Part shown: piece by piece, positions 4,114-28,761 of the stretch
Numbering within the stretch: position 1 is the stretch's first letter
How the letters are laid out: every line of letters starts with the position of its first letter
Origin: Planctomycetota bacterium
Lineage (GTDB): Bacteria > Planctomycetota > Planctomycetia > Pirellulales > Pirellulaceae
NCBI GenBank assembly: GCA_026692885.1
Contig: JAPLNJ010000735.1
Location: 1-29,360, forward strand
Direction: 5' to 3'
DNA: 29,360 nt
Translations under genes and position numbers: made by a program
The notes under the pieces: model-generated
The model's database searches: none
Seen by the model: the letters and a program-made list of their open reading frames with translations, nothing else
What the model was told of the DNA's origin: nothing

Positions 4114-4173
4114 TTGGCGGGTTCCTTGCTCAACTAGCTCGCCTGCCCGGTGATCAGGGCCACGGGGCGAGAC

Positions 4174-4662: not shown

Positions 4663-4765
4663 GCTCTTTCATCTCCGTGAAGTAAAAACCGATGCGAGGC
4701 TTGGGGCGCCACTGCGCCCAAACACCTCAACTCGACAACTGACCCGCACGCCGTCCCGCTGCGTC

Positions 4766-6146: not shown

Positions 6147-6450
6147 TGCTGCGGATATGTGCAAAAAGTGCGTGCAGCAACTTGCCCCGCCTGACGACAA
6201 CTTCGGACGCTGCTTTTCCGTCGCCGGTGGTCGTCTCGACCAGCTCCAATAAAGCCAGCGTCTCCAGGCGGTCTCCAAGTATTCCACGTCCACCAACTCG
6301 CCGGCTGCATCGGCGGACGTGATCCCACGTCTGACCCAAAGGCAATCGGCACCGTCGCCCGATTTCTGTGAGGGGCAAGCCGTCCAGGTACAGACGGCTC
6401 ACCCGCCGATGCAACTTGGCGGCTGCTTCCCGTTTTTCTGTCGCCGTCAT
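6118..6450 (-). CDS. Putative small HTH DNA-binding protein
   Basis: The 110-residue basic protein has a likely helix-turn-helix around residues 17-45 (LYLDGLPLTEIGRRCRL). A leucine-rich helical region follows (LETLALLELVETTT). No specific family was recognised. ATG 6450 begins just after the stop of the upstream gene (6454), with GGAG eight bases before it. Its end overlaps the TerS-like gene. With that gene it forms a compact pair of HTH proteins, possibly a small regulator or packaging module. Confidence 0.65.
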   Translation of the reverse strand: MTATEKREAAAKLHRRVSRLYLDGLPLTEIGRRCRLPLGQTWDHVRRCSRRVGGRGILGDRLETLALLELVETTTGDGKAASEVVVRRGKLLHALFAHIRSNGGAVRGRR

Positions 6451-6453
6451 CGC

Positions 6454-7305: not shown

Positions 7306-7341
7306 CGTTACGAATCTCCATTGAAAAAAGTAGGGTCAGTC

Positions 7342-7989
7342 TCAAGTACCGAATTGGTGTTGCCGCTGTGCTGGCGGATCTCCGTACTGTGCTCGGAAAT
7401 CCTTATCGCTAAGTGTCAGGGCGTTGATCGGGCTTGCTCGCCTGCGGCTGGGGTCCGGCTTCGCCTCTGCCGGCTTCGCCTCTGCCGGCTTCGGGGATCT
7501 CGCCGTCGGTCCTTGGTTCCCCGCGTCTTCCGGGGCAAGGAAACTCGCCAATCCGAAAATCTGCATCACGTCGTTGATCTCGCTCAGCGTATGCGACGTG
7601 CAGCACGGCTCCCAAAGAATGGTGCCATCGGGGGCGTGCAGCTCTCTCGGTAGCGCCGGCTTGCCGCATAGAAAACATTCTTGCTGGCCATGTCGTTGGG
7701 CTTCGATGCCGTACCGTTCTGGCGTCGGCTGACGGGCCGGCCCGATGCGTCTGAAGCGGGTTCCGCCCGGCCGCTGATTTAGCTCGCTCAGGCTGTGATG
7801 TCCGCATAGCGGGTAGTGCTTGACCGTGCCATCAACGGTGTGCAGCTCTGCCATCGGGGCGGGCTGTCCGCAAATTATGCACGGCTCGCCGTTGGGGGCG
7901 GCGGTGGTCTCGGCTCGTCCCTCGCTGTACCGTGTCAGGGTCGCCCCCGACGTTCCGTAAGTCGGCCCGAAGTATTTTTCAACTTGCAT
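7342..7989 (-). CDS. Tandem Cys-rich (zinc-ribbon-like) protein
   Basis: The 215-residue protein contains two copies of one module: CIICGQPAPMAELHTVDG...LCGHHSLSEL (residues 37-70) and CFLCGKPALPRELHAPDG...PCCTSHTLSEI (105-138). Each has CxxC followed by Cys and His about 20 residues later, a likely zinc site. The tail has a KPAEA tandem repeat and ends in charged sequence. It is probably a nucleic-acid or protein-binding adaptor; no named family was recognised. ATG 7989 has AGGAG seven bases upstream. The gene lies between the 105-residue coiled-coil protein and the 283-residue protein in the element operon. Confidence 0.7.
   Translation of the reverse strand: MQVEKYFGPTYGTSGATLTRYSEGRAETTAAPNGEPCIICGQPAPMAELHTVDGTVKHYPLCGHHSLSELNQRPGGTRFRRIGPARQPTPERYGIEAQRHGQQECFLCGKPALPRELHAPDGTILWEPCCTSHTLSEINDVMQIFGLASFLAPEDAGNQGPTARSPKPAEAKPAEAKPDPSRRRASPINALTLSDKDFRAQYGDPPAQRQHQFGT
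7456..7493. repeat. 15-bp tandem repeat inside the Cys-rich gene
   Basis: CGGCTTCGCCTCTGC occurs twice without a gap (7456-7470, 7471-7485) plus eight bases of a third copy (to 7493). It encodes the KPAEA repeat of the tail. Perfect short tandem copies in coding DNA suggest slippage and possible length variation between strains. Confidence 0.85.
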
Positions 7990-8057
7990 GTTCCCTCTCC
8001 TAAAAAGTCGTCCGTAACCCTCTGGGGGTGCGAACTATCCTCGAAAAACTCAACGCC

Positions 8058-8375
8058 TCACGCATTTTGCGACTTGCCCCGGCTTCGCCCGTGCACGGGG
8101 GCGTGCATTTTCGGCGGCTGGCCGGGCCGGATGGCCGACAGATATGCTTTCCCGGTCGTCATCCATCCGGCAGTCTGAAGCGGCTGTAGCTGGTCTACGA
8201 TTTCCGCCCAGTCAATCCACGCCTTGCCACCCAGAACCAAATGCTCGGCGTCGCCGGTCTGGCACATCTCGGTCTTGGTGGACACTGTGCAAACCACTGG
8301 ACGCCTGGGCGGCGGCTGGTTACGCACGGCCAAGACGGCTTCGATTTTTGCAAGTCGCTTTTCCAAGCCTGTCAC
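8058..8375 (-). CDS. Hypothetical 105-residue protein
   Basis: A short charged helix opens the protein (MTGLEKRLAKIEAVLAV) and may form a coiled coil. A Pro-rich turn and a region with KTEMCQTGDAEHLV follow. No family was recognised. The GTG start at 8375 has AGGAA seven bases upstream and shares four bases (GTGA) with the stop of the upstream gene, a sign of translational coupling. The following 68 bases before the Cys-rich gene hold nothing obvious. Confidence 0.6.
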   Translation of the reverse strand: MTGLEKRLAKIEAVLAVRNQPPPRRPVVCTVSTKTEMCQTGDAEHLVLGGKAWIDWAEIVDQLQPLQTAGWMTTGKAYLSAIRPGQPPKMHAPVHGRSRGKSQNA

Positions 8376-8662
8376 GGGTAGGTTCCTCTCGTCGCCACGG
8401 CTGCGGCTGCGGCGTCCTGGTTGTTGCTCGGCTCCGATGTCACGTCAGCCGCCTCGCTCGCCGCCTGCGTCGTCTTGGTCGCCTGGGATTGGGCTTGGGC
8501 TTCCACCTTCCGCAGTTCTTCGCTGGATCTCCAGTCGGGTCGTGAAAAACTGAACACGGCTTCCCCTCGCACTCTTTCCTTCATGCGGCTGCACGTTGTC
8601 TTGAGTCTGCGGAAACCTTCCGCGGTCATCTTCGCCGGCCGTGGTGATCTTCTGCCCTTCAC
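8372..8662 (-). CDS. Hypothetical 96-residue protein
   Basis: A basic N-terminus (KGRRSPRPAKMTAEGFRRLK) leads to an Ala/Gln/Ser-rich low-complexity C-terminus. No family was recognised. The GTG start at 8662 overlaps the primase stop by four bases (GTGA) and has GGAGG eight bases upstream; the frame is open to 8692. It overlaps the following gene in the same way. The coupling makes it likely that it is translated, though its function is unknown. Confidence 0.6.
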   Translation of the reverse strand: MKGRRSPRPAKMTAEGFRRLKTTCSRMKERVRGEAVFSFSRPDWRSSEELRKVEAQAQSQATKTTQAASEAADVTSEPSNNQDAAAAAVATRGTYP

Positions 8663-11595: not shown

Positions 11596-12008
11596 GGGGT
11601 GGGTTCCTTGGTCTGGGTCTGCGGCTGGGGGCGGTCGCAATCATCCTGGGGTGCGAACTTCTGAGCTTTTCCTTGGGTTTCCGGCGTCTCGGCCTCGCCG
11701 GTGTGCACGCCTGCGTGCATATTGGCCTCCGCCTGGGCTGCGGCCAGGTCAGCCAGCCATCGCCGCACGCCGTCCACCGGATACCGTCGCAGTCGTCCCT
11801 GCGGTAACACGGCGGACGGTGGCCCATCGCCACGCCGGGACATCGCCAACACGGTTCCGACACTCACGCCGATGGCCTTGGCCAGCTCGCCGACAGTCAT
11901 CGCCAGCCGCTCGACGGGCGCGGCGGTGATGGTCGCCACTGGCGGGGCGGCTGGGGGCGTCGCCGATTTCTGCCAAGGAAACATGGGGCGGGCGGTGTTG
12001 GTGGTCAT
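11592..12008 (-). CDS. Excisionase-like HTH protein
   Basis: This 138-residue protein has a central winged-helix/MerR-type DNA-binding domain: MTVGELAKAIGVSVGTVLAM (about 37-56), SRRGDGPPSAVLPQGRLRRY as the wing, then VRRWLADL. This is the layout of AlpA/Xis proteins that bind att DNA or regulate islands. A disordered Pro-rich N-terminus and Gln/Pro-rich C-terminus flank it. It is the second gene of the operon, 12 bases after the 61-residue HTH gene, and overlaps the primase start. A role in excision or transcription is inferred. Confidence 0.75.
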   Translation of the reverse strand: MTTNTARPMFPWQKSATPPAAPPVATITAAPVERLAMTVGELAKAIGVSVGTVLAMSRRGDGPPSAVLPQGRLRRYPVDGVRRWLADLAAAQAEANMHAGVHTGEAETPETQGKAQKFAPQDDCDRPQPQTQTKEPTP

Positions 12009-12020
12009 GGGCCGAACCTC

Positions 12021-12206
12021 TTAAGCCGTCGCCGGGGTGCTGGGGGTGGTTCTCGCCTTCAGCTCTTCGAGGACTTTTTCGCGCTCGAAGCGAATCGTCT
12101 TAGGGCTGACTCGGACCGCCTTGACCTTCCCATCTGTGACCCATTTCCGCAGTGTTTGGGGCTGAACACCCAGTTCGGCCGCCATCGCTTTTGTTCGGAC
12201 GAGCAT
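12021..12206 (-). CDS. Small excisionase/AlpA-like DNA-binding protein
   Basis: The 61-residue protein is a single winged-helix domain: MLVRTKAMAAELGVQPQTL (helix-turn-helix), RKWVTDGKVKAVRVSPKTIR (recognition and wing), then a charged C-terminal helix. It matches the excisionase (Xis/HTH_17) type. ATG 12206 is preceded by GGGGGAGG with seven bases between, the best ribosome binding site of the element; the longer open frame to 12326 runs through a terminator and is rejected. It is the first gene of the main operon, behind a leader with two intrinsic terminators, so its expression is probably attenuated. Confidence 0.8.
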   Translation of the reverse strand: MLVRTKAMAAELGVQPQTLRKWVTDGKVKAVRVSPKTIRFEREKVLEELKARTTPSTPATA

Positions 12207-12231
12207 TTCCTTCCCTCCCCCTGTTACCAAT

Positions 12232-12273
12232 AAAAAAAGCCGACGGAGACCACGCTCGTGGTCGCCATCGGCT
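12232..12273 (-). terminator. Intrinsic terminator A in the operon leader
   Basis: On the minus strand an outer stem AGCCGA/TCGGCT and an inner stem GACCAC/GTGGTC form a compound hairpin followed by seven Ts. It lies only 26 bases before the first gene (12206). A 14-codon frame (ATG 12268 to TAA 12224, MATTSVVSVGFFYW) runs through the stem, so translation could disrupt it. The sequence just upstream, CGACCGAGCACCGGAG, is shared with terminator B. Confidence 0.75.
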
Positions 12274-12331
12274 CCGGTGCTCGGTCGCCAATTGGTTTCA
12301 GTTACTACGCGATTTTCTTTGCCCAAGAACT

Positions 12332-12369
12332 AAAAAAGGCCCGCAGAACCTTTGGTGGCTATGCGGGCC
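12332..12369 (-). terminator. Intrinsic terminator B in the operon leader
   Basis: On the minus strand GGCCCGCA and TGCGGGCC form a perfect 8-bp GC-rich stem followed by six Ts. The upstream flank CGACTGAGCACCAGAG parallels that of terminator A. Both lie between the candidate promoter and the first gene of the operon. Confidence 0.8.
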
Positions 12370-12411
12370 TCTGGTGCTCAGTCGGCCGCTATCAGACTTC
12401 AACTACCTATA

Positions 12412-12440
12412 AACGTAGCGACTCACGTAGGTAGTGTCAA
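12412..12440 (-). promoter_or_regulatory. Candidate promoter of the element replication operon
   Basis: A perfect TTGACA (12435-12440) on the minus strand is followed after 17 bases by TACGTT (12412-12417), a mediocre -10; TTTATA slightly further on is an alternative. The promoter is framed by an 8-bp inverted repeat, ACTACCTA (12402-12409) and TAGGTAGT (12428-12435), and contains ACGTAG twice, which suggests an operator. The remaining bases to 12634 hold no convincing gene. Confidence 0.4.
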
Positions 12441-12634
12441 ACGGATAAATCAGATTTTCTTTTGCATCCGTCAGATTCCCCAGCCGTCCCCCCGGCCTCG
12501 CCGCTTGTGTCGGCGGGATGCCGCTCGGCGTCTTAGTGGTCCACGTAGGCGGCTCGCTCGAAAGTGTACATAATGCCACTACTAAGACCACGACGGGCTA
12601 ACCATGTCCCACCCATGCGTATACCATAAGCAGC

Positions 12635-14164
12635 TTACTTCTTCGGGGGATACTTTCGCGTCTTACTGCGGGTGCCCTGCGATTGCTGCGGATTGGGTCC
12701 GTTCGATGTCGTCGGTTGCCGTGCTGCGCCCGTGTCGGTCCTGGTTGGAGTCTGACTAGCCTGTTCACCGCGCGAATCCGGCCAGGTCTCTAACGCTTCG
12801 CGAAGCTCGTACCCCTTGGGTGTCGTCAGCGGCACACCGGTCAAGTGCAAGCGGAATGCGACACTTCCTGGGAGATCAAGCCCGTCAAAACTTCCGTGGA
12901 GGGTCGCTGGCTTGCTCCCGTTTGGTACTTCGGCGAAAAACACCACCCCTCCCGTCTCGCCTGCTTCGATTGTATGAGAACGCGGCCAATCAATGCGTCG
13001 ACATTCCGAACTGGTTCTCTGCACGTATGCCGGATACTTGAAAGCATTATCGGTCTCAAGCTCGCCATGCAGCGTCTCCATTCCCGGATCTCCCGTTTGA
13101 TTGAATTGTCGCATACGATTCGACACTGTTTTCCGCGGACCCAAGTTCTCGACTCGTGCCCAAACGCAAAGGAATTTTTGGCCTCTTGGTGCGCGATCTG
13201 AGGGAAACAGCAAGTTATTTTCTTGGCAAGTCGGCTTCCAGTCGTCCACAAAGCAGTGCTCGAAGGTGAGACGATACTGCGTCACCTTTTCGGAGAGCAT
13301 ACTCTCCGACACCCAAAACGTCGTAGGCGCACCCATTCGGAGCGTTCGCACCCCGGACGACGTGCCAGTCATTGATTGCCCGGTGAACGAAGAATGGAGC
13401 GCCCACACAATCGTCAGCAACGCGAGCCCCCCCAGGACTGCTGCACCCGTAAGGATCCAGGCTACGAAAAGACGGGGATTAGCGGCTCGTCGTCGCTTCA
13501 AATTGTCAACAATCATTGAGGAAGTGCGGCGGTGGGGCGCACCGGAATCGGTAACCCGGCCTGACGGTCCAGGCATCTGCGCGGGGGCTTGATTGATGCT
13601 TTGTTTCGCTATTGTCGGCGTACCCGTTGGAATTGGTGACGGTCGCATCTTCCTGGCCGGTAGGCGCGGGTGCCTGCCACTGCGAATAACAAAGCCCAGC
13701 CCGATCCCCGCTCCACCACCAAGAAACAGTCCCAGTAGGCCAAAGGCAAGAATGTGAACGGGAATTAGGCTCGTTCGAGCCGGGCTCCACGGTACGGCCA
13801 GCGACTTCTCAATGAACCCCCCGAACACTGGCCAATACTGACTCAAGAGCAAGCCGAAAAACGACGAACCAGTCGCACCCGATAATGCACCCACGCAACC
13901 CCCGATAATCGGCGCGAAGAACCCGGACTGACGATTGTCTGATGGGGCATCAGTACGAGACGACAACGCTGGTGGCGGTGGGCAATGCGGCGATGGCGGC
14001 GGGAGTTCGGAATGGACAGCACTGCCCACGCTTGGCGGCTGCGATGGATCACGAACGGGCATCGTGAAGACTTGTCGGCAAAGGGGACACAGAACATCCC
14101 TTCCCGCAAGTTCGGCGACGTAGGCCACCGAGCCGATGCAATGCGGGCAGTTGATGACGGACAT
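12635..14164 (-). CDS. Membrane protein with zinc ribbon and DUF4352-like domain
   Basis: This 509-residue protein starts with a zinc ribbon (CPHC at 6-9, CPLC at 26-29), then a Pro-rich linker. Glycine-rich hydrophobic segments (about 83-107 and 133-160), a basic linker and a third membrane helix (232-256) follow. The region from about 275 to 440 looks extracytoplasmic and beta-rich; GQKFLCVWARVENLG resembles the opening strand of DUF4352-type immunoglobulin-like domains. The tail is low-complexity and basic. AGGGGG lies six bases before ATG 14164. It is separate from the replication operon, next to the right att site, where islands carry cargo. A sensing or surface function is possible, but none can be assigned. 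Confidence 0.7.
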   Translation of the reverse strand: MSVINCPHCIGSVAYVAELAGRDVLCPLCRQVFTMPVRDPSQPPSVGSAVHSELPPPSPHCPPPPALSSRTDAPSDNRQSGFFAPIIGGCVGALSGATGSSFFGLLLSQYWPVFGGFIEKSLAVPWSPARTSLIPVHILAFGLLGLFLGGGAGIGLGFVIRSGRHPRLPARKMRPSPIPTGTPTIAKQSINQAPAQMPGPSGRVTDSGAPHRRTSSMIVDNLKRRRAANPRLFVAWILTGAAVLGGLALLTIVWALHSSFTGQSMTGTSSGVRTLRMGAPTTFWVSESMLSEKVTQYRLTFEHCFVDDWKPTCQENNLLFPSDRAPRGQKFLCVWARVENLGPRKTVSNRMRQFNQTGDPGMETLHGELETDNAFKYPAYVQRTSSECRRIDWPRSHTIEAGETGGVVFFAEVPNGSKPATLHGSFDGLDLPGSVAFRLHLTGVPLTTPKGYELREALETWPDSRGEQASQTPTRTDTGAARQPTTSNGPNPQQSQGTRSKTRKYPPKK

Positions 14165-14286
14165 TGTCAGCCCCCTTCGAGAAGACGAGCGATGCTGCGG
14201 CTGGACGCAAATACCGGCCCCCAGCCTACCACCCGGCGAATCGACCTACAATTAGTGCCGCGTGGACCGATGCCTGGGCCGACAGT

Positions 14287-14463
14287 CTACGGTTCCGTGC
14301 CGATCGCCGCCTTGGCCATCGCCAGAATACCCGCCCGTGTTCCGGCGTCCAGGGGCACGGGGCAGGTGTCAAGCCACTGGTCGACGGTCGGGATTGCACG
14401 TCCTTGTGCACGGGATTCCGAAGGAGTATCATTTTCCCCGTGTTTTTGCTCGGTGTTCGCACC
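14287..14463 (-). other. Stranded alternative C-terminus of the integrase
   Basis: Across the right att core the minus strand reads CTA CCC GGC CAG in the same frame as the integrase LPGQ. It then stays open for 58 codons to TAG at 14287-14289. The tail includes a charged linker and AIPTVDQWLDTC, PVPLDAGTRAGI and LAMAKAAIGTEP, which look protein-like. There is no start codon of its own. In the excised circle it would be joined to the integrase gene. Confidence 0.6.
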
Positions 14464-14476
14464 CTGGCCGGGTAGC
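14455..14476 (+). repeat. Attachment site, right copy
   Basis: GTTCG-CAC-CCTGGCCGGGTAGC repeats the tRNA-Gln 3' end of 1775-1796, with 19 of 22 bases identical and an unbroken 14-base core at 14463-14476. No other tRNA part is present here. It marks the distal end of the element; chromosomal sequence with arsenic genes follows. Confidence 0.85.
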
Positions 14477-14855: not shown

Positions 14856-15461
14856 ATGCCGACGATCCGAGTCTTCGATCCACCGATGTGCTGTTCCACG
14901 GGTGTGTGTGGTCCGAGTGTGAATCCCGTGTTGCCGCGATTCGCTGCGGACCTGGAGTGGCTGAAGTCGCAAGGTGCAACCGTCGAGCGATTCAACCTGG
15001 CTCAGCAACCGGACGCCTTCGCCAAGAACGAGCTGATCCGGGAAACGCTGCGCACGCACGGTGACAAGTGCCTGCCACTGCTGCTGGTCGACGGCGAAAT
15101 CGTCGCTCAGGGCAGGTATCCGCTGCGCGAGGAACTGGCGGTGCTGGCTGGTCTGACGCCCCGGGACGCGGACAGCCTGTACACGTCCGCGGTGGAAGAA
15201 CTGGTGGCGATAGGGGCCGCGATCGCGGCGAACTGCGAGCCCTGCTTCGAGTATCATTTTCGTGAAGCCCGGAAGCAGGGTGTCTCCCGGAACGACGTCG
15301 CGTTGGTGATCGCCACGGCCCGCCAGGTGAAGGAAGCCGCCGCGGCGGCGATGTCCAAGGTGGCGGGGCGGCACTTGGCTGGTGAACGGGAGACAGATCG
15401 CCCCCGTACGGAATCTTGCTGCGGTCCGACGCTGCCGATCGGTTCCGAGAAATGTTGCTGA
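14856..15461 (+). CDS. arsD: ArsD metallochaperone fused to an AhpD/CMD-like domain
   Basis: The 201-residue protein begins as ArsD, which binds As(III) or Sb(III) and passes it to the ArsA ATPase. It has FDPPMCCSTGVCGP with the metal-binding triad C12, C13, C18, and the thioredoxin-like fold continues to LAGL (about residue 100). Residues 105-175 form an AhpD/carboxymuconolactone-decarboxylase-like helical domain with NCEPCFEYH (C127, C130, H134), the CxxC-xxxH redox motif. The C-terminus has two more Cys pairs (188-189, 200-201). ATG 14856 has GGAGGAG six bases upstream. It precedes the arsA remnant on the same strand, so its usual partner is broken here. The domain fusion implies coupling of arsenic handling to thiol redox chemistry, an inference. 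Confidence 0.85.
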   Translation: MPTIRVFDPPMCCSTGVCGPSVNPVLPRFAADLEWLKSQGATVERFNLAQQPDAFAKNELIRETLRTHGDKCLPLLLVDGEIVAQGRYPLREELAVLAGLTPRDADSLYTSAVEELVAIGAAIAANCEPCFEYHFREARKQGVSRNDVALVIATARQVKEAAAAAMSKVAGRHLAGERETDRPRTESCCGPTLPIGSEKCC

Positions 15462-15534
15462 GACGGGACCGCAGAAGGACGCCCTCGCCCCGGTACGATT
15501 GGTAGGAAGAAGGTCTGAGATAACTTTGCTGTTC

Positions 15535-16050
15535 ATGGAACGGGCCGCACGGAATCTGTTTTTCACGGGTAGGGGCGGTGTCGGCAAGACTTCGTTGGCT
15601 TGTGCCGCAGCCGTGACTTTGGCCGAACGAGGCCAACGCGTGCTGCTGGTCAGCACCAATCCGGCCTCGAATTTGGATGAGGTGCTGGGAGTCGCCTTGA
15701 GTAGCCGTCAGTCGCATCGATCCCGCCGAGCAGACGCGGGAGTATATGGCGGAAGTCTTGGCGATCGCCGGCGTCGGCTTGGACGCCCCAGGCCGGGCGT
15801 TGCTGGAGGAAGTGGGTGATCAACCAGAGCCTACCGCCGTTGGGGGTGCGGGACTCGCTACTGGCCGCTCGTCAGCATGATGAATCGCAGTGCATCCACG
15901 AAGTTATCAAACGCTTGGCGACGCGAACGGCCCTGATTCCTTGGTTGCTCGAAGCACCGGTGGGCGCGCACCAACTGTCGCTGGCCGTCCAGGGCTACGG
16001 CGAAGGCCAGGACTGGCTATCGGCCAAGGCCATGACACGCACAGCCTGTG
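15535..16050 (+). pseudogene. arsA: Remnant of arsA (arsenite-transporting ATPase)
   Basis: The N-terminus is intact and clear: FFTGRGGVGKTSLACAAAV (P-loop) and LLVSTNPASNLDEVLG. The frame then shifts near 15700, after which SRIDPAEQTREYMAEVLA and GRALLEE continue ArsA in the +1 frame. At about 15811 the sequence jumps to the far C-terminus, WVINQSLPPLG...HEVIKRLATRTALIPWLLEAPVG, in another frame. ArsA normally has about 580 residues in two ATPase halves; most of the middle is missing. One internal deletion plus a frameshift explains this, and no functional product is expected. It follows arsD by 73 bases. The end at 16050 is approximate, where similarity fades into the Uma2 gene. Confidence 0.8.
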
Positions 16051-16055
16051 CATGG

Positions 16056-16709
16056 TTAGGTCTCGGGTTCGACGCCGAGTGCCCGCAGTTGAGCTGTCAA
16101 GCGTTCGTTTCGCTGCCGCTCGCGATCGCTTAGCTCAGCCAGTTCAACATAGCTGGCCAGGGGACGGCCATCGGGGCGCAGAACACGTAGTTCACCGGAA
16201 GATAACTCGAAACGTACGCCCAGCCGCGGACTCGTCCAGCCGTCCGGTTCGGCAATCTCCTGGAACGTATCTGCCTGGCGAATCCAGCCCGTCAGTCGGA
16301 CCACGTCCGGGTCGTAGATGTAGAACTCCTCGACGCCATAGCGCTCGTAGAACCGGAATTTGCGGACCATCTCCGCCGCGTGATTGCCAGGTGAGGCGAT
16401 TTCAAACACGACTTGGGGCGCGAGACCGTCTTCTTCCCACTGGCGATACGAGCCGCGATCTCCTTTGGGACGTCCCCAGACGACGAACACATCGGGTGCG
16501 GCCCGCAGTGTGTTGTTCCCTTCCACGGGATACCACAGCAGGTCGCCCGCCACGAACACCAGGGGATCAGCAAGGAACAAGGCATCCAGGCCGCCTTGGA
16601 GCGTCTGGATCCAGCGGAACTGCACGGTGTTGTCGGCCATCGGTTGCCCATCGCTGTCGGGATAATCCACCTTGGGTTTGGTACGCGTCAGAGTTTCTGT
16701 GCTCATCAT
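16056..16709 (-). CDS. Uma2-family (DUF820) putative nuclease
   Basis: The protein has about 217 residues. It shows the PD-(D/E)xK-type core of Uma2 proteins: APDVFVVWG (D73), VFEIASPGN (E103), EMVRKFRFYERYGVEEFYIYDPD (K117) and a C-terminal Asp/Arg-rich coiled coil. These proteins are very numerous in planctomycetes and cyanobacteria; their biological role is not established. Three consecutive ATG codons (16706, 16709, 16712) follow a GAGG; the middle one has the best spacing. The gene is convergent with the arsA remnant. Confidence 0.85.
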   Translation of the reverse strand: MMSTETLTRTKPKVDYPDSDGQPMADNTVQFRWIQTLQGGLDALFLADPLVFVAGDLLWYPVEGNNTLRAAPDVFVVWGRPKGDRGSYRQWEEDGLAPQVVFEIASPGNHAAEMVRKFRFYERYGVEEFYIYDPDVVRLTGWIRQADTFQEIAEPDGWTSPRLGVRFELSSGELRVLRPDGRPLASYVELAELSDRERQRNERLTAQLRALGVEPET

Positions 16710-19370: not shown

Positions 19371-20144
19371 TCATGTTCGCTTGGACGAAGGCTCTGTGAC
19401 CTGACGCAGAATCAACATGTCATCGTCCAAGCCGTGCCGAACCAGTTCGATTCGGTCAGCCCTGGCTAGGATGCCAGGCGAGTATGCATCCAGACGGAAG
19501 GGGAAAAAAGCCGGCGACTGAAGGAGTGCCTGCACCGAAGCTTTCCCGATTTCCTCTGTGTATAGTGCGGCCTCGACCAGCCACGCGGTTAGGTATGGGT
19601 GAGTGATGGCGAGGGTTTGGCCCGCGACGTAGACGCCTCGCTCCGGGCCTTCAGCCAGGACACCCCAATCCACAAAGGTCCGTAAGACGCGTCGCGCCGC
19701 ACGGCTTACCGTCTCACGTTCGCCATACTTTTCGCAGGCTCGTCGCTGAACCTGCGCCGCCGCAGCAGTTCCTTGCAGACAAAGGAGCCGACCCACATGG
19801 GAGGCGATCCCGGCGACGAACGGATAGGCGGCGATCGACATTCCCCAATGGATGACCAGTTGATCGCGCTGCGGCAACTCTTGAAGAAGTCGTAAGCCGT
19901 CGGCCCGCAGAGCTCGGTGTTCGTGAGGGACAGTCACCCACACCTTCATGAGGATGGTAATCGCCTTTTCCCGAGTTCCGCGCGGCGAAGTCCCGCCGAC
20001 CGATAGTTTGTCACACAGGAAATGCTGGAGTGCATGCTGGATTTCCGCTTCTCCCATACCGGCCAGCAGGAGGTTGGCGGTTCTTTCCAGCCATTCGAGC
20101 CGAACGCGTTGGCTGAAACCGATCTGATGGGGCCGTTTGATCAT
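19371..20144 (-). CDS. BREX-associated protein in the BrxA position
   Basis: This 257-residue protein closes the BREX-like operon. It is mostly alpha-helical, with a winged-helix-like middle (ASHVGRLLCLQG, VSRAARRVLRTFVDWGVL). In BREX type 3 loci the gene after pglZ is brxA, and the all-helical DNA-binding character fits that family, but I did not recognise DUF1819 motifs with certainty. Its ATG overlaps the stop of the PglZ chimera by four bases (ATGA), so the two are translationally coupled. Product length and frame look undamaged. Confidence 0.6.
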   Translation of the reverse strand: MIKRPHQIGFSQRVRLEWLERTANLLLAGMGEAEIQHALQHFLCDKLSVGGTSPRGTREKAITILMKVWVTVPHEHRALRADGLRLLQELPQRDQLVIHWGMSIAAYPFVAGIASHVGRLLCLQGTAAAAQVQRRACEKYGERETVSRAARRVLRTFVDWGVLAEGPERGVYVAGQTLAITHPYLTAWLVEAALYTEEIGKASVQALLQSPAFFPFRLDAYSPGILARADRIELVRHGLDDDMLILRQVTEPSSKRT

Positions 20145-21373
20145 TGTGCCTTGCGAGTGACCTGTATCAACGGAACGACGACTTCCTCCAGCGACATACC
20201 ACCATGCGCCACGATTCTATCGCCTTCCGAGACAAAGGCCAGCCGCCCAGGTGCCAGCAATGGCAGATAGCCTTCGGGTAGCCCAACAGGAAGCCACGGC
20301 AGGGCATCGGGAAAACGCTCTTGAACGCCAGCCAGCAAGCATTCGTCGGAGAAGACGCGAACACGTTCGCCCCGAATATCGGCAATCGCTCCTTCGGACG
20401 GATTACCACAGCCGACCGCCTCAATGTTTCCGTGATCCGAGGTTACGGTAACTGCAAACCCACGATCCAAGAGAATTCCGAGCAGCCTCGCCAAGTAGCC
20501 TTTCTCAGCCCATTGTCGCACCTGGGCCAGCATCCCGTCCATGCCGAGCGTCATGCCGTGCATGATCTTGTCGATCTTGTCGACAACGAGCCCGAACGCA
20601 CGAAGGGACGGATGGGAAGCCATCTCCGTGACCTTGTCTAGACCACGTTCACCCAGCCCCCGGATATACATGCTTCCCCAGTTCGTCAACCCGTGGTCCG
20701 ACCAAAACAGCTCCCACTGTGCGGCGTCCTCGTCCGTAGAGTAAATGCTCTCCGGGAAGTAAAGCGGGGGCTTGGCGGCGAAGGCCGCCTGCCGGGACAC
20801 GGCCGTGATGGTCGGAATCCAGGCGAACACGGCACGTTCCTGAAAATGTAGTCCTGGACGCTGGGCCTGCAAAACGTCTCGCACGACGAGCCACTGACTG
20901 ATCGCCATGCCATCCACCAGGACTAGGGCGACCTTCTTGTCGGCCGACTCCTCACGCTGCCGCGTCAGTTCCCGGGTTACGTGGTGGAGCATTACCGGCG
21001 GCACGTGGTTGATTGTGTAATCCTTGCTGTAGGGCACCGTTGGGTCATAAGGCTTGCCATACTGTTCGAGGAATTTCTCCAGAAATGGATTCGGGCAAGC
21101 CGTATGGTAGGGCGGATCGGAGAGCGCGAGGATGGCCTCCTCCGTGCTGATCGGGAAGCCTTCCGTCTTCCGAAAATCGGGATCCTGAAGCTTTTCCCGC
21201 AGTGCGTTCAGGAAGTGCTCGCGGCGGGCGTTGTCGTCGGGAAAGATTCTTCCCAAGCACTCGACCTGTTGCCCGTGTGGCGTCTCCAATTCCTCTTCGT
21301 GAGATTTGTCGAATATAGGCTGTTGGCCGCTGGGATCTCTGGAGGGACTGCCGGTGGGACGTTTGAATGTCAT
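20141..21373 (-). CDS. Chimera: PglXI methyltransferase N-terminus fused to PglZ phosphatase domain
   Basis: The 410-residue product joins two BREX proteins. Residues 1-118 are the N-terminus of a BREX type 3-like adenine methyltransferase: ILALSDPPYHTACPNPF and EQYGKPYDPTVPYSKD match that family, where DVSEGK-type sequence normally follows. From residue 119 (INHVPPVMLHHVTREL) it is PglZ: VALVLVDGMAISQW (D154), WIPTITAVSR (T188-T190), VVDKIDKIMHG, TSDHGN (D313, H314) and HGGMSLEEVVVPLI. The alkaline-phosphatase-fold catalytic domain seems complete, but the PglZ N-terminal domain, the methyltransferase catalytic part and the helicase gene that should lie between are gone. The frame is open and coupled to both neighbours (10 bases after brxC, ATGA overlap with the next gene). 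The start ATG 21373 has a weak site (AGAAGAA). Confidence 0.85.
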   Translation of the reverse strand: MTFKRPTGSPSRDPSGQQPIFDKSHEEELETPHGQQVECLGRIFPDDNARREHFLNALREKLQDPDFRKTEGFPISTEEAILALSDPPYHTACPNPFLEKFLEQYGKPYDPTVPYSKDYTINHVPPVMLHHVTRELTRQREESADKKVALVLVDGMAISQWLVVRDVLQAQRPGLHFQERAVFAWIPTITAVSRQAAFAAKPPLYFPESIYSTDEDAAQWELFWSDHGLTNWGSMYIRGLGERGLDKVTEMASHPSLRAFGLVVDKIDKIMHGMTLGMDGMLAQVRQWAEKGYLARLLGILLDRGFAVTVTSDHGNIEAVGCGNPSEGAIADIRGERVRVFSDECLLAGVQERFPDALPWLPVGLPEGYLPLLAPGRLAFVSEGDRIVAHGGMSLEEVVVPLIQVTRKAQ

Positions 21374-21383
21374 CGAGTTCTTC

Positions 21384-24300
21384 TTACTCCAGAACGATCC
21401 GCACCTTGGCAGGATCCAGGCCCTTGGTCAGTTGATCGAGGTATCCATCCAGACGCTTCCGCAACTCGGCGGGCGACGCCGGTGAACCAGCGGGGAACAG
21501 CGCACTCTGCAGATTGTCGGCAGTCACTGCCACTCTGACCAAACCGGAGAGGACCTCCTGAGCGGCCTGCAGGAATCCTTGGCTTGGGATCTCCGGCAGA
21601 GCTCGTTCCTGGAGGAAGGCGTCGATCGATTCGCGCTGGTCGGGCTTGAGCAACTGCAGATTCTGACGCGTCGCGGAATGTTCGAGGTCGGAAAGCAGCG
21701 TCTGGGTCCAGGCCGCCACCAGGGAATCCAGTTCGTTGTCCAGCCCCTCAAGCACTGCGCGAGCCGGCGGCCCGGGCGGTTCGACGGCCGGCTTGTAGCC
21801 GCAATGCGGGCAGATCGGGACCGCGCTGAGTTCCGGTGCCGTCAGTGCAAAGCAGCTTTCGAGTCGATCCACGCGCTTCTGGAAGTCGGTCACTTGCTGC
21901 CGCGGCAGGATGTCGATGCTTGCCAGCTTCTGGAGCAGGAGTAACCGTGGATCTTGCGCCAGCGAGTTCTTGCGTTTATCTTCGTTCACTCCTAGACGGG
22001 CTCGGGTGTGCAAAGCCGCATAGACCGTGACGTAAGCCTTTTTCAAATCGAGCAGCTTGCGGTGCAGATCCTGCCGGAGCTTCGCCGTGGTTCGCTGCTT
22101 CGCATCCAAGATGCCCTCGAGGACTTCGCCGCGGGCCGTCTTCATCGCTGCCACCCAATGGTGATCGGCGGGCAACACCGCTTCGGCTGTCGAGAGGTAC
22201 GACGCCACGGAACCCGCGTCGGCGATCAGCGACTGCAACGATTCCACCTCGGCCAACGTCTTGAGGTCGCTTCGATGCTCGTTCACATCGGCTGCGGAGT
22301 AGCGAAAATTCTTGAGTTTGCCGGGCGAGTTATAGGCCTGCAGCGACTCCAAGAATTCCTTCGTCGATCCCAATTTCGCTCGAAGCTTGTCTGCCTCGCC
22401 CGGTTCCAATAGGTTGCGGCCCCAGAAAGCCAATCCCGCGTTTATCGTCTGTTGTGCCACGACGAGTCGCTGTACAACGTGATCGACCGCCTTCCGCATT
22501 TCCTGTACCGGTTCGGTCTTGCCTTGTGTGATCTGTTGGGCCGTGCCTGGCGCCAGTCCGAGCAGCTCAAAGACTGCTTTCAGAGCTGGCAAGTTCCAAT
22601 CCTTGGGCCATTCGAGGTGCTTGAAGGCAACCAGTTCATCGACAGGCGTGGCCGCCAGCGATGGCAGATTCGTCGCGTCGAACTTGTCTCCCACAAGGGC
22701 CAACACCGCATCGCCCGTGTAGACCAACGACGCGAACGTAACCACGGCCCACTCGGGTTCCAGGCGGAACGTGCCGGGTGCCAAGTACTCCACGCCCAGC
22801 ACGTCTTGGATTAACTCGGAACGGTTGACAACCTGCCCCTGGCCTTTCTTCTTGATCACTTGCAGGACATGCTGTGCGTATTTCGATCGGTAGGGATCCA
22901 GCCGGTCGCCATCGAGCAATTCCAGTGCGCCGAGCACAGCCGCAGCTTGCTTGGTCCGGGGCTGGCCCGCCAACGCCCGCAGGGCATCTTGGGCTGCCTG
23001 CTCGCGGTTGTCCCCGGTGATCAGGACTGTGAAGACGGGATAATCCGGTGATAGATTTTGAAAGTGGGCGGACAGGCAGACGGAACCGACCGTATTCACC
23101 ATGTCACGGACGTTGGCACGCACGCCACCGGTCGCCGTCACTTTGCCTTTGACCCACTCCACCAGCTTTCTCGTCTTGCCCTGGTAGGTGACGTCGTACG
23201 CGGTCCCGAGGTGCTCCTGTAACCAGCGAACCAACTGCTGCAGGAATCCATTGGGTCCACTGGCCCTGGCTTCGTAACTCGCCTTCGCGTGGCCCGAAGA
23301 GGTCGAGGCCAAGTCGAGGGCAGCCGCATAACCGCGCAGAGCGGCACGGAATGCATCGTCGGCACCGGCGAGTCGAAAAAACACTTCGTCTGGCTCCTTC
23401 CCGTCCTTGAAGGCCGGTGGATCGTGGGGCTGGATGAAGTAGAGATAGAAATCACGCGCTGGTACGGCCGTGGAGCGTTCGTTCGGAGCGCCAAAAAACA
23501 AGTATCCACCCCGGGACGCCTTGTGCTCGATCCATTCCAGCGAGTGCTGCCAAATCTTGTAGCCACCGACATGTGTCTGATCGGTGCATTCCAGGACGCG
23601 TTTCAGAGCTTCGTAGTAGTAGCGGTCCAGCCGCGCATCGTCCAGTGTCTCGGCCCGCCTGGCGACCAGGGCGCCGTAGTCATCGGTCTTCTTCAGGTCC
23701 AGGTAATACTGCCCGTTGTCGGGACTGCAGGAAATGAACTGCCCGCTCACCGTCCTGTGGATTTCCCGGAGCACCGTTTCGACTTGGGTGCGCAAGTCTT
23801 CTGCCGGATCCCCGCCCAGTTCTTCGATACCCGGTTGGTACAAGCACAAGCTATCCCGCAACTCCTGCGGCGTCGCCCCCAACGGGGCCTGCACGTCGCC
23901 GGTTGTCAGCCGATGAATCGACAGTCCATGGATAATCTGCAGAGCCATGCCCTGGTAAGCCGGCCGCGTGAACGTTTGCTGGATGCGGGATTCGAGCACC
24001 ACGCTGCAGTCGATCACCGCCCGGATATCTGGCACGGCACGGAAGGACGGGTTTTCTCGCAGCGTGGTCCAGTAGGTATCGTACGCGATGACGCCCGGAC
24101 GATCCTCAGGAACAGGCCTGTTCAACAGTCCCTTCATGGCCAGCGAAAGCGTCTTTAGCACCTCGCGTTTTTCGATGGCTCGGATCCGTTCAAACGTGTC
24201 GATGTAGTCGGGGTGAACGGGAAATAGCCGGACGAAGTCGTCCATCCGCTCGTTCATGTTTCCGTAGAACTTGGCGAAGGCGGTCAGGTACTCACGGATC

Positions 24301-25100
24301 CTCGCCTGTTGCTCGATGGTCTTCTTCAGCAACCGCTCGGCAACGACGAACTTGACGTCCTCCCGTGCAATCAGGACTTGGTCAAAGCGATCCTTCACTC
24401 GCCGGATACTGTCGGCGACGAACGCGAATCGCTGGCTGTCGAAAATGGCTTCCTGCACCCCCGCCATGAAGCGGAACCGCAAATCTTTGCACACCTCGCC
24501 GAGTTCGCGCAGAAAACTCAGGTCGAGGATCAATTCCTGGTCTTTGCGTGTCCGCAGGAAATCCAGCAGTTCGTCCACCACCAAGAGCAGTCCGTGATCG
24601 GGGTACTCTTGATGAAACGCCACCATCATGTCTTCCAGGGGACGTTTGTTGTTTGCGACTGCTTCTGGAAACGTGTAGCTCACTCCCAGGTGGCCTAGGT
24701 GCTCCTCGAGTTCCGCCACGATGATGTCCCGCAAAGACATGGTCGTGGAACCGATTTCGGTGCGGATGACCTTGAACTTGCCGGCAATCCGGATCGCGGC
24801 CTCCGCCAACCTGCGGTCGTTGACCTGGGAAACCAGTTCCGCGTGTTCCGCAATTGCGGAAATCACTGACATCAGATGGGACTTGCCGGTCCCATAGTTG
24901 CCGACGATCAGGATCCCTTTATTGTCGGCAGGCGTTTGGAACTGGAGTTGGGGCAGCACCAAACCGATCAGTTTTTCGGACATCTCGGCGGAAACAACAT
25001 ACGTTCGCACGAGATTCGCTGCCGCCTTCGTCCGGTCCGCGTCGCGAAGTTGAACGACGGTTTCGATGGGATCGAACTGGATGAGTTCGCCGTACTTCAT
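21384..25100 (-). CDS. brxC: BrxC/PglY-type ATPase (DUF6079)
   Basis: The 1238-residue AAA+-like ATPase is the largest core component of BREX phage defence. It carries a P-loop GNYGTGKS (67-74) and a Walker [13 protein letters not shown] (D176, E177). The long helical middle and the C-terminal coiled coils are typical of DUF6079. A CPHC knuckle (C1097, C1100) near the C-terminus may bind zinc. Length fits the family (about 1200). I prefer ATG 25100 because AGGA lies nine bases before it; ATG 25109 directly abuts that motif. It follows brxF by 34 bases and precedes the PglX-PglZ chimera by 10. No stop or frameshift is seen, so it appears intact. Confidence 0.9.
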
Positions 25101-25134
25101 GGCGGCCATTCCTACGTTCCGGCGGCAGTGGGGG

Positions 25135-25611
25135 TCATGCCGCGGGCTGCGAGTTCACGATAATCAAGTCTTCGATCGGGTATCGACGAAATTCCGCGTG
25201 GTCCGGCACGGCATAAGTCAATTGCCTGCCATCTGCCGTTCCATTCCAGGCTGCAACTATTGTACGGTTTCGTGACAATCCCTGCAGCAGCCGAAGTGGA
25301 TCCTGCCGTAGCGAGACATCGAACAGGATTTCGGTGTTGTCCAGTAGCACCGGATCACAACTGTCGTCGCCAAGGACCTCGGCAAGCAACCGTGCGGTCT
25401 GGATCGCTCTTTGACGTCCCGTAAGCGAGAGCATTCGTTTGGAGATCTCCAGGTTGACGTTGATGTACCGAGCACCGGTCTGAGCCGCCACCTCGGCCAG
25501 CGCCGCAGTCTTACCCGTACCTTTTTGCCCAACGATCAGTACCAGCCGATGGTATAGTTCCGATAGGTTACCCAACTTCCCAATAATATGGTCCGCGAGC
25601 TTCGCAGGCAT
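25135..25611 (-). CDS. brxF: BREX type 3 P-loop protein BrxF
   Basis: The 158-residue small ATPase has Walker A GQKGTGKT (28-35) and a Walker B-like strand [13 protein letters not shown] (D91, N92). A standalone P-loop protein of about 150 residues directly before brxC is the signature gene of BREX type 3, so it fixes the subtype. The Walker B has Asn where Glu is usual, which may weaken hydrolysis. ATG 25611 is used; the upstream GGGGAA is a modest ribosome binding site. It is the first gene of the operon, behind a promoter with an inverted repeat. Confidence 0.8.
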
Positions 25612-25848: not shown

Positions 25849-28761
25849 TCAGCGCAAGGCCTCGGTCAAGTCGCACGTGGAGACCGCGCCGGGCATGTCC
25901 ATCCGAGGCCGTTGCTGCAGCAGTTGCCGGATCGGCTCAAAGGTCTGCAGCACGGCTTGGTAATCGGGATCGTGCGGGTCGGAGAAAACCGCTTGGCCGC
26001 AGACTTCCGTGCCGCCCGCGCTCTTGGCCAAGGGAGCCAGCAGGAAATCGTTCAGGTGCGGATGCTCGATCCGCACGCCCATACCGCCCCACGGCCCCAG
26101 CCCTCCGCTCCAGGTCGGCGGACGCCACGTCGCGAGGAACTTGACGTTCTTCTTGGTGTGGCACTCCTGGCAGCGACGGGCGTACACTTCGTCCATGACC
26201 CGCTTCAAGTCCGGCGGCAGCATCTGCCGACAGGCCGGCAACTCCGGGTGCGCCGTCTCGGCCGTGCCATAGTACGGCACGTTCAGGTCGATCCACATCA
26301 GGATCCGGCGGCGGTTGGGAGAGTCCATGTTCAGCCGCGGCTTACCGTGCTCATCGGGGTGACCGGTCAGAATCAGGTCGGCCAGTTTGCTGGCGGGCGA
26401 GCCCCAATACTTGGGCGTGATCTGCAGGATGTTCCACTCCTGGCCGTTGTAGGTCGGGATCCAACTCACGTACGGGCTGCCGGTCTTGTCCTGGTTCCTG
26501 CGGGCGAGCACTTCGTACGAGACGTTGAAGTAGTCCGTCCGGTCGCCGCTCAGGTCGATCCCGCGGTCTTTCTTCAGTGGGTTGTGGCATTCGACGCAGT
26601 ACTTGTCGAGCACGGGTTGGACGATTCGCGAGTAGCAGAAGCCCTGGGTGCCCCACTCCGGCGTGTGCAACGTCTGCGGCTCGCCCAACGCGGCGAGCGG
26701 CAGCTGACGCTGCGGCGTTTGTTGCCGGGACTCGTGGCACCCGACGCAGCCTTGCACCTCGCCCGGCATGAGATGCGTGAAGCTCCGCATCCGTTGGATC
26801 GCGCGGCCCTGGGCATCGAGCGCCAGGAAGTAAATCGGCTGCTTGGCGGGGACCTTGAAGTACGCAGAACCGTCCTGGGCCACGTCCGCAAAGCCCCAGA
26901 CCTTCTTCGGCACGTACGTGGCGCCGCAGGACACCAACACTCGCTGATAGCCGAACGCCGGCTGGTTGATGCCGGGGCTATTGATCAGGGTGCGACGCAG
27001 TTCCTGGACCACCGCAATCTGCTTGACCTCGCCCGGTTGCACATGCGGCGTTAAACCGTTCTGCACGTCCTGCAGATAGACGGCCGCCCACGGACCGGCT
27101 TCCTCCTCAGTGGGCAAGCTGGACCGCCGGACTTGCGGACGCTCTCGAGGCCGCAGGGGACGTGGGTTATAGAAACCCAGACGGCGCGGTGCGAGCACCG
27201 TCGTCTGCTGCCCACCGTCATAGTCGCGCAGCAAAATCGTGCCGTCGTAGGAGACCAGGAAGTAGGTGTCGTCCACGGGGTAGGGAGTCTGGTAGGGTCC
27301 GCGCGGCCCGTTGGAACTTACCTCGACGCCTGGCAAACGCACCTCCGGGGTCAGATTGCGGATCGCCTCCTGGGCATTCTCCCCGTAGCTCGGGTCGATC
27401 AAGCCGATCGCACCGCGGCAGGTTCCGTTGTGCCCGGTCAGGGTGCATAGGATCGCCGTGGAACCCGGGATCGGTTGCGGCTCGATGAACGTGGCCGGGT
27501 CGAGGACCCGATTGCCAAAGAAGCCCTTGAGCATCGTTCCGTCAGGATTGATTGTCCACAGGCTTTGGATCGGGATCGCGGGCCGGTCCACATACTCCCA
27601 CCGGCCATAGATGATGCGCCCATCGTTCATCACGGCGGGCGTGAAGTCGTTCAGGTAATTGGCGGAAATCTGCCGCTGGTCCGAACCGTCGGCCCGCATC
27701 GTGAACAGAATGCCGACCGGCGTGAAGAAACAATAGGCGGCCTGGGGTCGGCGCGTGGAGAGGAAGACAATTCGGCCGTCGGGCAGCCAAGCCCCGTCGT
27801 AGTTGTGACTGTCACCGTCAGTCAGTTGCCGCAAGTCGCTGCCGTCCACGTTGATCGTGTACACTTGGTAGTACTCCGACTTGTGGCGCCAGCCGAACAG
27901 AATGGTGCGACCGTCGTAGGACAGGTCACAGCTTTGGATCTGGCCGTCCTTTGAGTCGACCAGTTGGGTCAGTTGGCCGTTGGTGACATCGTAGATGGAC
28001 AGGCCGCCGCCGTCGCTCTGCCCCTCGCAGTGATAGGTGTATACGTGCGTGCAGCGGATGTGGTGGCGCTGGGCGAGCACTAGTTTCGTAAAGCCGAGTC
28101 CCCCAGCCTTCAGTTTCGCCGCCAATTCGGGCGACTCCTCGATGCTGGGCGGGGGTGGGGGAAAGAGGCTCGGCTCGTCCTGCCCCGGAATCTCCGCCGG
28201 CTTCAGAAAGCGGCCCAAGTCGGTCGGCAGAGGACGCACGCCGTAGATGCGGATCTCGGACGCGCCCGGGTTCGGTCCGCCGTGGCTGCTCAGGAATCGC
28301 AACGTGAGCTTGGTCGTGGTCACGGGACTGGGAAGGTTCACCGGCTGCGGTCCGTGGCCCGGATTGAATTGTCCTTTGGCGACAGGTGCCGGGGACTCGC
28401 CCTCACGAATCTCGTAGTCTTTCCAGTTCTCGCCCAAGGTGAAGGCCGTGCGGCCGTAGTAGACCACGGTGGCGATGGTCACCGGTTGAGGCCACTGGAA
28501 GATGACGCTGACGCCTTCGGGGTAGTCATTTCCTCGGACACACCAAGCCTTGCCAACATCCTCGCGACTCATGGGGCCGGGGATCTGGCCATCGACCAGG
28601 TTGGCCGCCCGATATTGGGCGTTGTACTCCGCGCTCGCGGTCACCTGCGCTTTCGTCGCGAGGTTGTCCGGCAAGGAGGGACCTGCCAAGGCCCGGCTGT
28701 CCGTCAGGCAGCAGGCTACGAAGAGGGCCACGACGGCCGCGTAGCGCCATGAGTCGCACAT
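25849..28761 (-). CDS. HzsA-related multihaem protein (TolB-like beta-propeller)
   Basis: The 970-residue exported protein has a signal peptide (residues 1-27, AAVVALFVACCL core, cleavage after ALA). A discoidin-like (F5/8 type C) beta domain covers about 35-175. A TolB/WD-like propeller region follows (IYDVTNGQLTQLVDS, INVDGSDLRQLTDGDSHN). The C-terminal part has three c-type haem sites: CVGCH (672-676), CVECH (722-726) and CQECH (864-868). This architecture matches planctomycete proteins related to the hydrazine synthase alpha subunit. Most bacteria with this family are not anammox, so hydrazine synthesis should not be assumed; a periplasmic redox or sugar-linked role is more likely. The proline-rich linker near residue 205 (PSLFPPPPPSIEES) separates the domains. 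It is encoded upstream of, and in the same direction as, the BREX operon, with 237 bases between. Confidence 0.85.
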   Translation of the reverse strand: MCDSWRYAAVVALFVACCLTDSRALAGPSLPDNLATKAQVTASAEYNAQYRAANLVDGQIPGPMSREDVGKAWCVRGNDYPEGVSVIFQWPQPVTIATVVYYGRTAFTLGENWKDYEIREGESPAPVAKGQFNPGHGPQPVNLPSPVTTTKLTLRFLSSHGGPNPGASEIRIYGVRPLPTDLGRFLKPAEIPGQDEPSLFPPPPPSIEESPELAAKLKAGGLGFTKLVLAQRHHIRCTHVYTYHCEGQSDGGGLSIYDVTNGQLTQLVDSKDGQIQSCDLSYDGRTILFGWRHKSEYYQVYTINVDGSDLRQLTDGDSHNYDGAWLPDGRIVFLSTRRPQAAYCFFTPVGILFTMRADGSDQRQISANYLNDFTPAVMNDGRIIYGRWEYVDRPAIPIQSLWTINPDGTMLKGFFGNRVLDPATFIEPQPIPGSTAILCTLTGHNGTCRGAIGLIDPSYGENAQEAIRNLTPEVRLPGVEVSSNGPRGPYQTPYPVDDTYFLVSYDGTILLRDYDGGQQTTVLAPRRLGFYNPRPLRPRERPQVRRSSLPTEEEAGPWAAVYLQDVQNGLTPHVQPGEVKQIAVVQELRRTLINSPGINQPAFGYQRVLVSCGATYVPKKVWGFADVAQDGSAYFKVPAKQPIYFLALDAQGRAIQRMRSFTHLMPGEVQGCVGCHESRQQTPQRQLPLAALGEPQTLHTPEWGTQGFCYSRIVQPVLDKYCVECHNPLKKDRGIDLSGDRTDYFNVSYEVLARRNQDKTGSPYVSWIPTYNGQEWNILQITPKYWGSPASKLADLILTGHPDEHGKPRLNMDSPNRRRILMWIDLNVPYYGTAETAHPELPACRQMLPPDLKRVMDEVYARRCQECHTKKNVKFLATWRPPTWSGGLGPWGGMGVRIEHPHLNDFLLAPLAKSAGGTEVCGQAVFSDPHDPDYQAVLQTFEPIRQLLQQRPRMDMPGAVSTCDLTEALR

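What the first reader, a model, noticed from the sequence alone, without database searches (positions are those of the whole stretch)
20141..21373. BREX type 3-like locus with a natural PglX-PglZ chimera
Seen: the N-terminal 118 residues carry methyltransferase family sequence (DPPYHTACPNPF, KPYDPTVPYSKD) and switch near base 21019 directly to PglZ sequence with an apparently complete phosphatase domain. Known: BREX type 3 order is brxF, brxC, pglXI, brxHII, pglZ, brxA. Here brxF, brxC, the chimera and a brxA-position gene remain in that order, so one in-frame deletion removed most of pglXI, all of brxHII and the 5' part of pglZ. Inferred: the frame, the ATGA coupling and undamaged neighbours suggest either a recent event or retention of a reduced system of two ATPases, a phosphatase and BrxA that cannot methylate. 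A methylation-independent mini-BREX would be new. An assembly collapse must be excluded first.
Basis: partly seen in the sequence, partly recalled or inferred. Interest (0 to 1): 0.85.

Follow-up and report, generated by a model that had tools for sequence, protein, structure and literature searches.

The report
Deletion-fused stub of a BREX-3 locus
A bacterial anti-phage gene cluster has lost its DNA-marking enzyme through an internal deletion that glued the first part of that enzyme to the nuclease half of another protein; other genomes carry similar remnants, so it is most likely a decayed system rather than a new minimal one.

Summary
ORF 20141-21373(-) is an in-frame fusion: residues 18-118 match the PglXI profile at 4-101 of 919, residues 117-409 match PglZ at 373-665 of 666. 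BrxF, BrxC and BrxA around it are full length. No methyltransferase motif survives. The PglZ phosphodiesterase domain is complete: 35 of 35 invariant columns kept, predicted to fold, unlike the PglX part.

It is not unique, and I found no family sharing its junction. Three further fusions (P0002-P0004) have other junctions; their closest listed intact PglZ are 99.5%, 94% and 95% identical. One genome (L173) carries the same kind of join out of frame: pglX codon 113 to pglZ codon 637, then a truncated brxA. Other relics keep only a pglX stub or a brxC-pglZ-brxA remnant.

Best reading: a BREX-3 locus decayed by internal deletion, probably without methylation or defence (0.78). A working methylation-free mini-BREX is not excluded (0.08), nor an assembly error (0.10). 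That brxHII was deleted is an assumption: 28 of 59 relatives with pglX and pglZ show none in the stretch held.

The parts
20141..21373 (-). PglX-PglZ fusion ORF, 410 aa
   Evidence: junction
21020..21373 (-). residues 1-118: N-terminal prelude of PglXI, upstream of SAM motif I and of the later DPPF
   Evidence: low AlphaFold confidence
21002..21025 (-). junction zone (K117 to V124): PglX identity ends, PglZ identity begins
   Evidence: alignment, codon table
20141..20998 (-). residues 126-410: complete PglZ phosphodiesterase domain (D154, T190, D313, H314, H390 invariant in 50 rows)
21384..25109 (-). brxC (DUF6079 ATPase), full length
25135..25611 (-). brxF, full length
19371..20144 (-). brxA, full length, start overlaps the fusion's stop (ATGA)

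Best explanation
A decayed type 3 BREX locus. An internal deletion joined pglX at about codon 117 to pglZ at about codon 374-382 in frame. It removed about 2.5 kb of pglX and 1.1 kb of pglZ, and about 2.9 kb more if brxHII lay between (estimates from protein lengths). The product is the PglZ catalytic (nuclease/phosphodiesterase) domain with a roughly 120-residue PglX tail, predicted to be poorly folded. It cannot methylate (shown: no SAM motif, no catalytic motif). It has lost the PglZ N-terminus, which in type 1 BREX binds BrxB. Inferred: the locus neither marks DNA nor restricts phage; BrxF, BrxC and BrxA are leftovers not yet eroded, and the in-frame join is a one-in-three chance.
For: Profile split. 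Motif I and DPPF absent. Three other fusions with other junctions, whose closest listed intact PglZ are 99.5%, 94.4% and 95.3% identical. L173: pglX 7-113 abuts pglZ 637-668 (E 1.2e-4) in another frame, then brxA 7-73 only: the same kind of join, plainly dead. L137: brxC 20-150, pglZ 612-665, brxA 7-249. L057, L171, L172 and a plasmid recorded as complete (L175: brxF, brxC, 150-aa PglX) end pglX early. No fused ORF seen in 79 loci (L042 and L058 are cut by contig ends) or in genome draws with matches in 8 of 392, 7 of 369, 13 of 396 and 30 of 395 genomes. Literature, passages read: type 1 delta-pglX gives no defence and no methylation (PMC12205998); PglZ 1-98 was crystallised with BrxB and BrxC (PMC13326643).
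Against: The rest of the operon is intact and the fusion keeps frame and overlap with brxA. 35 of 35 invariant PglZ columns are kept; at columns at least 95% conserved it deviates at 3 of 57, and 5 of 70 relatives do as badly; in a wider set at 5 of 73 columns, and 13 of 387 rows do as badly: mild loosening at most, no pseudogene-like erosion. Distance ratios of both halves lie in the upper part of the range but inside it. The window's PglZ part is at most 62% identical to any listed protein, so the event cannot be dated. P0002 and P0003 enter PglZ only six codons apart, so a shared origin of those two is not strictly excluded, though P0002 is nearer to intact P0121 (99.5%) than to P0003 (94.0%). 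In type 1 BREX, mutations that break BrxB-PglZ binding cost only about tenfold of defence, and nuclease-dead PglZ keeps some (PMC12205998), so the docking argument is weak. Type 1 genetics may not carry over to type 3.
Confidence: 0.78

Rival explanations
1. Assembly artefact: the genome has a full pglX-(brxHII)-pglZ interval and the contig skips it, or two loci were joined.
For: No reads and no whole genome are held for the window; an arsA remnant in the same contig also lacks its middle.
Against: No repeat at the junction within the locus, no composition step. Other fusions and relics exist: a protein from a 7.25 Mb contig (P0004), relics on contigs of 54 kb (L137), 39 kb (L173) and 2.8 Mb (L207), and a truncated pglX in a plasmid recorded as complete.
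Confidence: 0.1
2. A retained, methylation-independent mini-BREX: BrxF and BrxC with a PglZ nuclease re-tethered by the PglX N-terminus, plus BrxA, restrict without self-marking.
For: All four ORFs intact; the phosphodiesterase domain is complete and conserved; two of four fusions (window, P0004) enter PglZ within about ten codons of each other, just before the catalytic domain.
Against: No listed relative shares the junction (120 rows each); PglZ N-terminus lost; type 1 BREX needs PglX for defence (PMC12205998); the same kind of join exists out of frame as a relic.
Confidence: 0.08
3. The fused protein acts with, or interferes with, a second complete BREX-3 elsewhere in the genome.
For: G1161 holds a relic and also pglX and pglZ places with long open frames on another contig; G767 and G1460 each show two pglX and two pglZ places.
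Against: The window's genome is not held, so nothing could be searched.
Confidence: 0.04

Closest known systems
Type 3 BREX (brxF-brxC-pglXI-brxHII-pglZ-brxA)
   Same: Gene order and full-length brxF, brxC, brxA; both halves of the fusion come from its pglXI and pglZ.
   Different: No methyltransferase, no brxHII match in the window, PglZ reduced to its catalytic domain.
PglX-PglZ fusions P0002, P0003, P0004 (public protein set, unnamed)
   Same: PglX N-terminus fused in frame to the PglZ catalytic region.
   Different: PglZ is entered at about codon 288, 282 and 373 of their close intact relatives; P0002 and P0003 keep SAM motif I. Their gene surroundings could not be seen.
BREX-3 relic in genome G1401 (L173)
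   Same: pglX 5' end joined directly to pglZ 3' end, followed by brxA.
   Different: Out of frame, PglZ catalytic domain gone, brxA matched only to residue 73, no brxC or brxF match in the 16 kb held.
StySA, an inactive BREX of a Salmonella laboratory line (PMC9009780, passages read)
   Same: A BREX locus without restriction or methylation although the genes are largely intact.
   Different: Multiple mutations in pglZ and brxC; pglX wild type.

Membership tests
Type 3 BREX, functional system | BrxF | tested here: met
   profile 3-156 of 158, E 1.1e-64
Type 3 BREX, functional system | BrxC of the DUF6079 kind | tested here: met
   profile 1-1231 of 1231; PF19557 1-1238 of 1238
Type 3 BREX, functional system | PglXI adenine methyltransferase with SAM motif I and catalytic motif | tested here: not met
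   profile positions 4-101 of 919 only; the motifs lie downstream in intact PglX
Type 3 BREX, functional system | BrxHII helicase | tested here: not met
   no tblastn match in the window; the rest of the genome is not held; a published survey finds it in 77% of type 3 taxa (PMC12839542)
Type 3 BREX, functional system | full-length PglZ | tested here: not met
   profile 373-665 of 666 only
Type 3 BREX, functional system | BrxA | tested here: met
   profile 1-249 of 251
Type 3 BREX, functional system | methylation and phage restriction | not testable with these tools
   needs experiment
PglZ catalytic domain | conserved active-site residues and nucleotide-phosphodiesterase fold | tested here: met
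PglX methyltransferase | Rossmann methyltransferase core | tested here: not met
   only the N-terminal prelude remains

The most novel reading that the evidence does not exclude
Loss of the methyltransferase core with fusion of the PglX N-terminus to the bare PglZ nuclease is a recurrent route to a self-mark-free BREX: the PglX tail replaces the lost PglZ docking domain and recruits the nuclease to BrxC/BrxF, giving a four-gene, methylation-independent defence.
Probability: 0.08. Interest if true: 0.8.

Novelty: new variant of a known kind. Interest (0 to 1): 0.35.

Why it matters
As a relic it shows how type 3 BREX loci can die: by internal deletions that cut pglX and pglZ, sometimes in frame. 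Gene calling then reports a lone short PglZ (298 aa here), so counts of BREX by PglZ hits can include dead loci. The natural fusions also offer constructs to ask whether the PglZ domain needs its N-terminus. If the locus did protect cells, it would separate BREX restriction from methylation.

Tried and rejected
Considered and rejected: residues 1-118 as a PglZ N-terminus (they are PglX; BLAST alignments to intact PglZ that reach further, about 52% over 88-89% against about 61% over 70%, add only chance-level identity over the extra 70 residues, my estimate). A fusion family with a shared junction (none listed). A contig join at a repeat. A hotspot or a kept 'pglX stub' gene: tblastn end points of stubs in L172, L171, L173, L057 and L175 are 102, 108, 113, 134 and 174 of the 954-residue reference, which looks clustered, but L176 ends at 592, and C-terminal remnants also exist (L207 677-951; L210 scattered pieces); the comparison is post hoc, so I leave it unexplained.

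Led nowhere: an alignment with separate PglX and PglZ pieces misaligned (A2; tests), so the fold of the fusion had only four rows over its N-terminus and its low confidence there is partly lack of depth. My first helicase reference was wrong and was replaced. Viral contigs gave 5 loci: L084 encodes a 666-residue PglZ ORF; L085, L086 and L088 show separate long pglX and, in the first two, pglZ ORFs; in L087 pglX runs off the contig end. E. coli genomes gave no match to the plasmid relic.

Not counted as relics because the gene runs into a contig end: L042, L058, L138, L170, L208, L209, L212, L198, L167. Undecided: L169 (pglX match ends at 165, transposase-like ORF behind it, contig ends 0.8 kb on), L174 (pglX match ends at 346, contig ends 0.4 kb on), L211 (5 kb contig, stops inside). 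Other short-frame rows (for example L090, L094, L095, L097, L123, L124, L161) were not followed; their held stretches are shorter than the flank, which suggests contig ends. Frameshifted or interrupted genes: L023, L052, L062, L010, L136.

Full report
What is there. The ORF at 20141-21373 on the minus strand encodes 410 residues. PADLOC splits it cleanly: residues 18-118 match PglXI positions 4-101 of 919, residues 117-409 match PglZ 373-665 of 666. NCBIfam names the second part BREX-3 PglZ. BrxF, BrxC and BrxA flank it in BREX-3 order and match their profiles over nearly their whole length. The fusion's stop overlaps the brxA start as ATGA. Aligned to intact PglX, the fusion follows PglX through YGKPYDPTVPYSK (K117); PglZ identity is plain from V124 PPVMLHH, so the switch lies in 21002-21025. 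Repeats and base composition show nothing at the junction. The database entry from this contig starts at residue 113 and so misses the fusion (P0001, 298 aa).

Is brxHII missing by the same event? Of 79 fetched loci, 59 show both pglX and pglZ; brxHII lies between them in 27, elsewhere in the locus in 4, and is not found in the held stretch in 28 (some stretches are cut). The published survey finds brxHII in 77% of type 3 taxa. The deletion was thus about 3.6 kb if pglX and pglZ were neighbours, about 6.5 kb if brxHII lay between (estimates from protein lengths).

Are there others like it? A protein search with the fusion scored 7995 candidates; 3599 passed and the best 120 were listed. Besides the window's own protein, three fusions came up: P0002 (609 aa), P0003 (565 aa) and P0004 (487 aa, on a 7.25 Mb contig). 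Of 348 distinct proteins returned by three searches (120 rows listed in each), 3 carry the PglX motif. Their junctions differ from the window's. Their closest listed intact PglZ are 99.5%, 94.4% and 95.3% identical. P0002 and P0003 enter PglZ only six codons apart, but P0002's PglZ part is nearer to intact P0121 (99.5%) than to P0003 (94.0%), and their PglX parts are 82% identical; separate events are likely, a shared one is not strictly excluded. The window's PglZ part is at most 62% identical to anything listed, so its event cannot be dated. No fused ORF was seen in 79 GTDB loci (L042 and L058 are cut). Draws of 392 genomes of the phylum of L037 (record titled Planctomycetaceae), 369 of the class of L002 (Gammaproteobacteria; query P0004), 396 of the phylum of L010 (Terriglobia) and 395 of the phylum of L007 (Desulfofustis) gave matches in 8, 7, 13 and 30 genomes. 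No place was a fusion; a few alignments reach back to query residue 47-97, but in PglZ-length frames of 674-773 aa.

Dead cousins. In L173 (G1401, phylum of L007, 38.8 kb contig, 16 kb held) pglX 7-113 ends at the base where pglZ 637-668 begins in another frame (E 1.2e-4, reading AHGGISIEELIVPLV), followed by brxA 7-73: the same kind of join, out of frame and without a catalytic domain. L137 (G1161, 54 kb contig) joins brxC 20-150 to pglZ 612-665 and brxA 7-249; that genome also holds pglX and pglZ places with long open frames on another contig. L172 and L171 show only a pglX stub in 16 and 14 kb, L171 with a stop inside. L057 keeps pglX 43-134, helicase 4-66, and near-full pglZ and brxA. A plasmid recorded as complete (AP022422, IncN, L175) has brxF, brxC and a 150-residue PglX, then an arsenic operon. 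L207 (2.8 Mb contig) shows only pglX 677-951, L210 only scattered pieces. L136 has pglX in two parts with an insert that I read as a transposase. BREX-3 loci therefore decay repeatedly, internal deletion being one way. In the draw of 395 genomes, 40 had a match to full PglX, some of them weak matches to other methyltransferases; I did not compute a rate of decay.

Tests for constraint. With leave-one-out conserved columns the fusion's PglZ part deviates at 3 of 57 columns conserved at 95% (5 of 70 relatives do as badly), at 5 of 74 conserved at 90% (7 of 70) and at 0 of 35 invariant ones; its PglX part at 1 of 25 (13 of 43); BrxC at 9 of 225 (4 of 20); BrxA 1 of 37 (17 of 47); BrxF 1 of 38 (6 of 6). 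Against 387 intact rows the PglZ part deviates at 5 of 73 columns conserved at 97%; 13 of the 387 do as badly, all of them among the fetched loci. Distance ratios put both fusion halves in the upper part of the range (rank from top, window included: PglZ against BrxC 4 of 19, against BrxA 7 of 66; PglX part against BrxC 4 of 13, against BrxA 4 of 33; each below the 95th percentile). This fits a recent deletion or mild relaxation; it shows neither erosion nor selection for the fusion.

How it most likely works. [quoted passage not shown] By analogy (inference) the present locus makes a nuclease domain without its usual N-terminus, plus BrxC, BrxF and BrxA, with no site recognition and no self-mark. 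Loss of function is the simplest outcome. A reduced system with the PglX tail as a new tether is possible but rests on no positive result.

Is it in print? Searches 'BREX PglX PglZ type 3', 'BREX PglX deletion fusion', 'bacteriophage exclusion BREX type 3 BrxHII', 'BREX incomplete pglX phase variation' and 'BREX pseudogen degraded methyltransferase' listed no paper whose title or abstract start reports a PglX-PglZ fusion. In the 2026 survey I saw 12 of 44 places found for fusion and related terms; those on fusions concern other BREX parts, and words beginning 'chimer' or 'truncat' do not occur in its main text. I did not read every listed paper.

Noticed in passing
1725-14476: Likely integrative element of about 12.7 kb: tRNA-Gln 1725-1797, tyrosine recombinase 1766-3169(-), and a 14-base copy of the tRNA 3' end at 14463-14476 (original 1783-1796); ERCC4 nuclease at 3619-4113. 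It ends before the BREX locus.
   Followed up: partly
15382-16133: arsA remnant beside arsD: ATPase start (PF02374 2-52 of 305) followed in another frame by an ArsA-like C-terminus (my reading, no profile match); the middle is missing.
   Followed up: partly
25849-28761: Protein with a hydrazine synthase alpha middle domain, beta-propeller and cytochrome-like motifs; suggests a planctomycete source (taxonomy is inference).
   Followed up: no
P0236: 378-residue protein joining an unrelated N-terminus to PglZ from just before the catalytic domain, on a 437 kb contig: another PglZ 5' loss.
   Followed up: no
P0082, P0243, P0246: Clusters of 308-310 residue PglZ catalytic domains with 34, 18 and 3 members that start at nearly the same internal point; frameshift, deletion or a real short form not decided.
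   Followed up: no
L171, L172, L173, L057, L175: Unexplained: pglX stubs in decayed loci end within residues 102-174 of 954; L176 ends at 592 and C-terminal remnants are also seen.
   Followed up: partly
L061: Two tandem pglX ORFs of 907 codons each in one BREX-3 locus.
   Followed up: no
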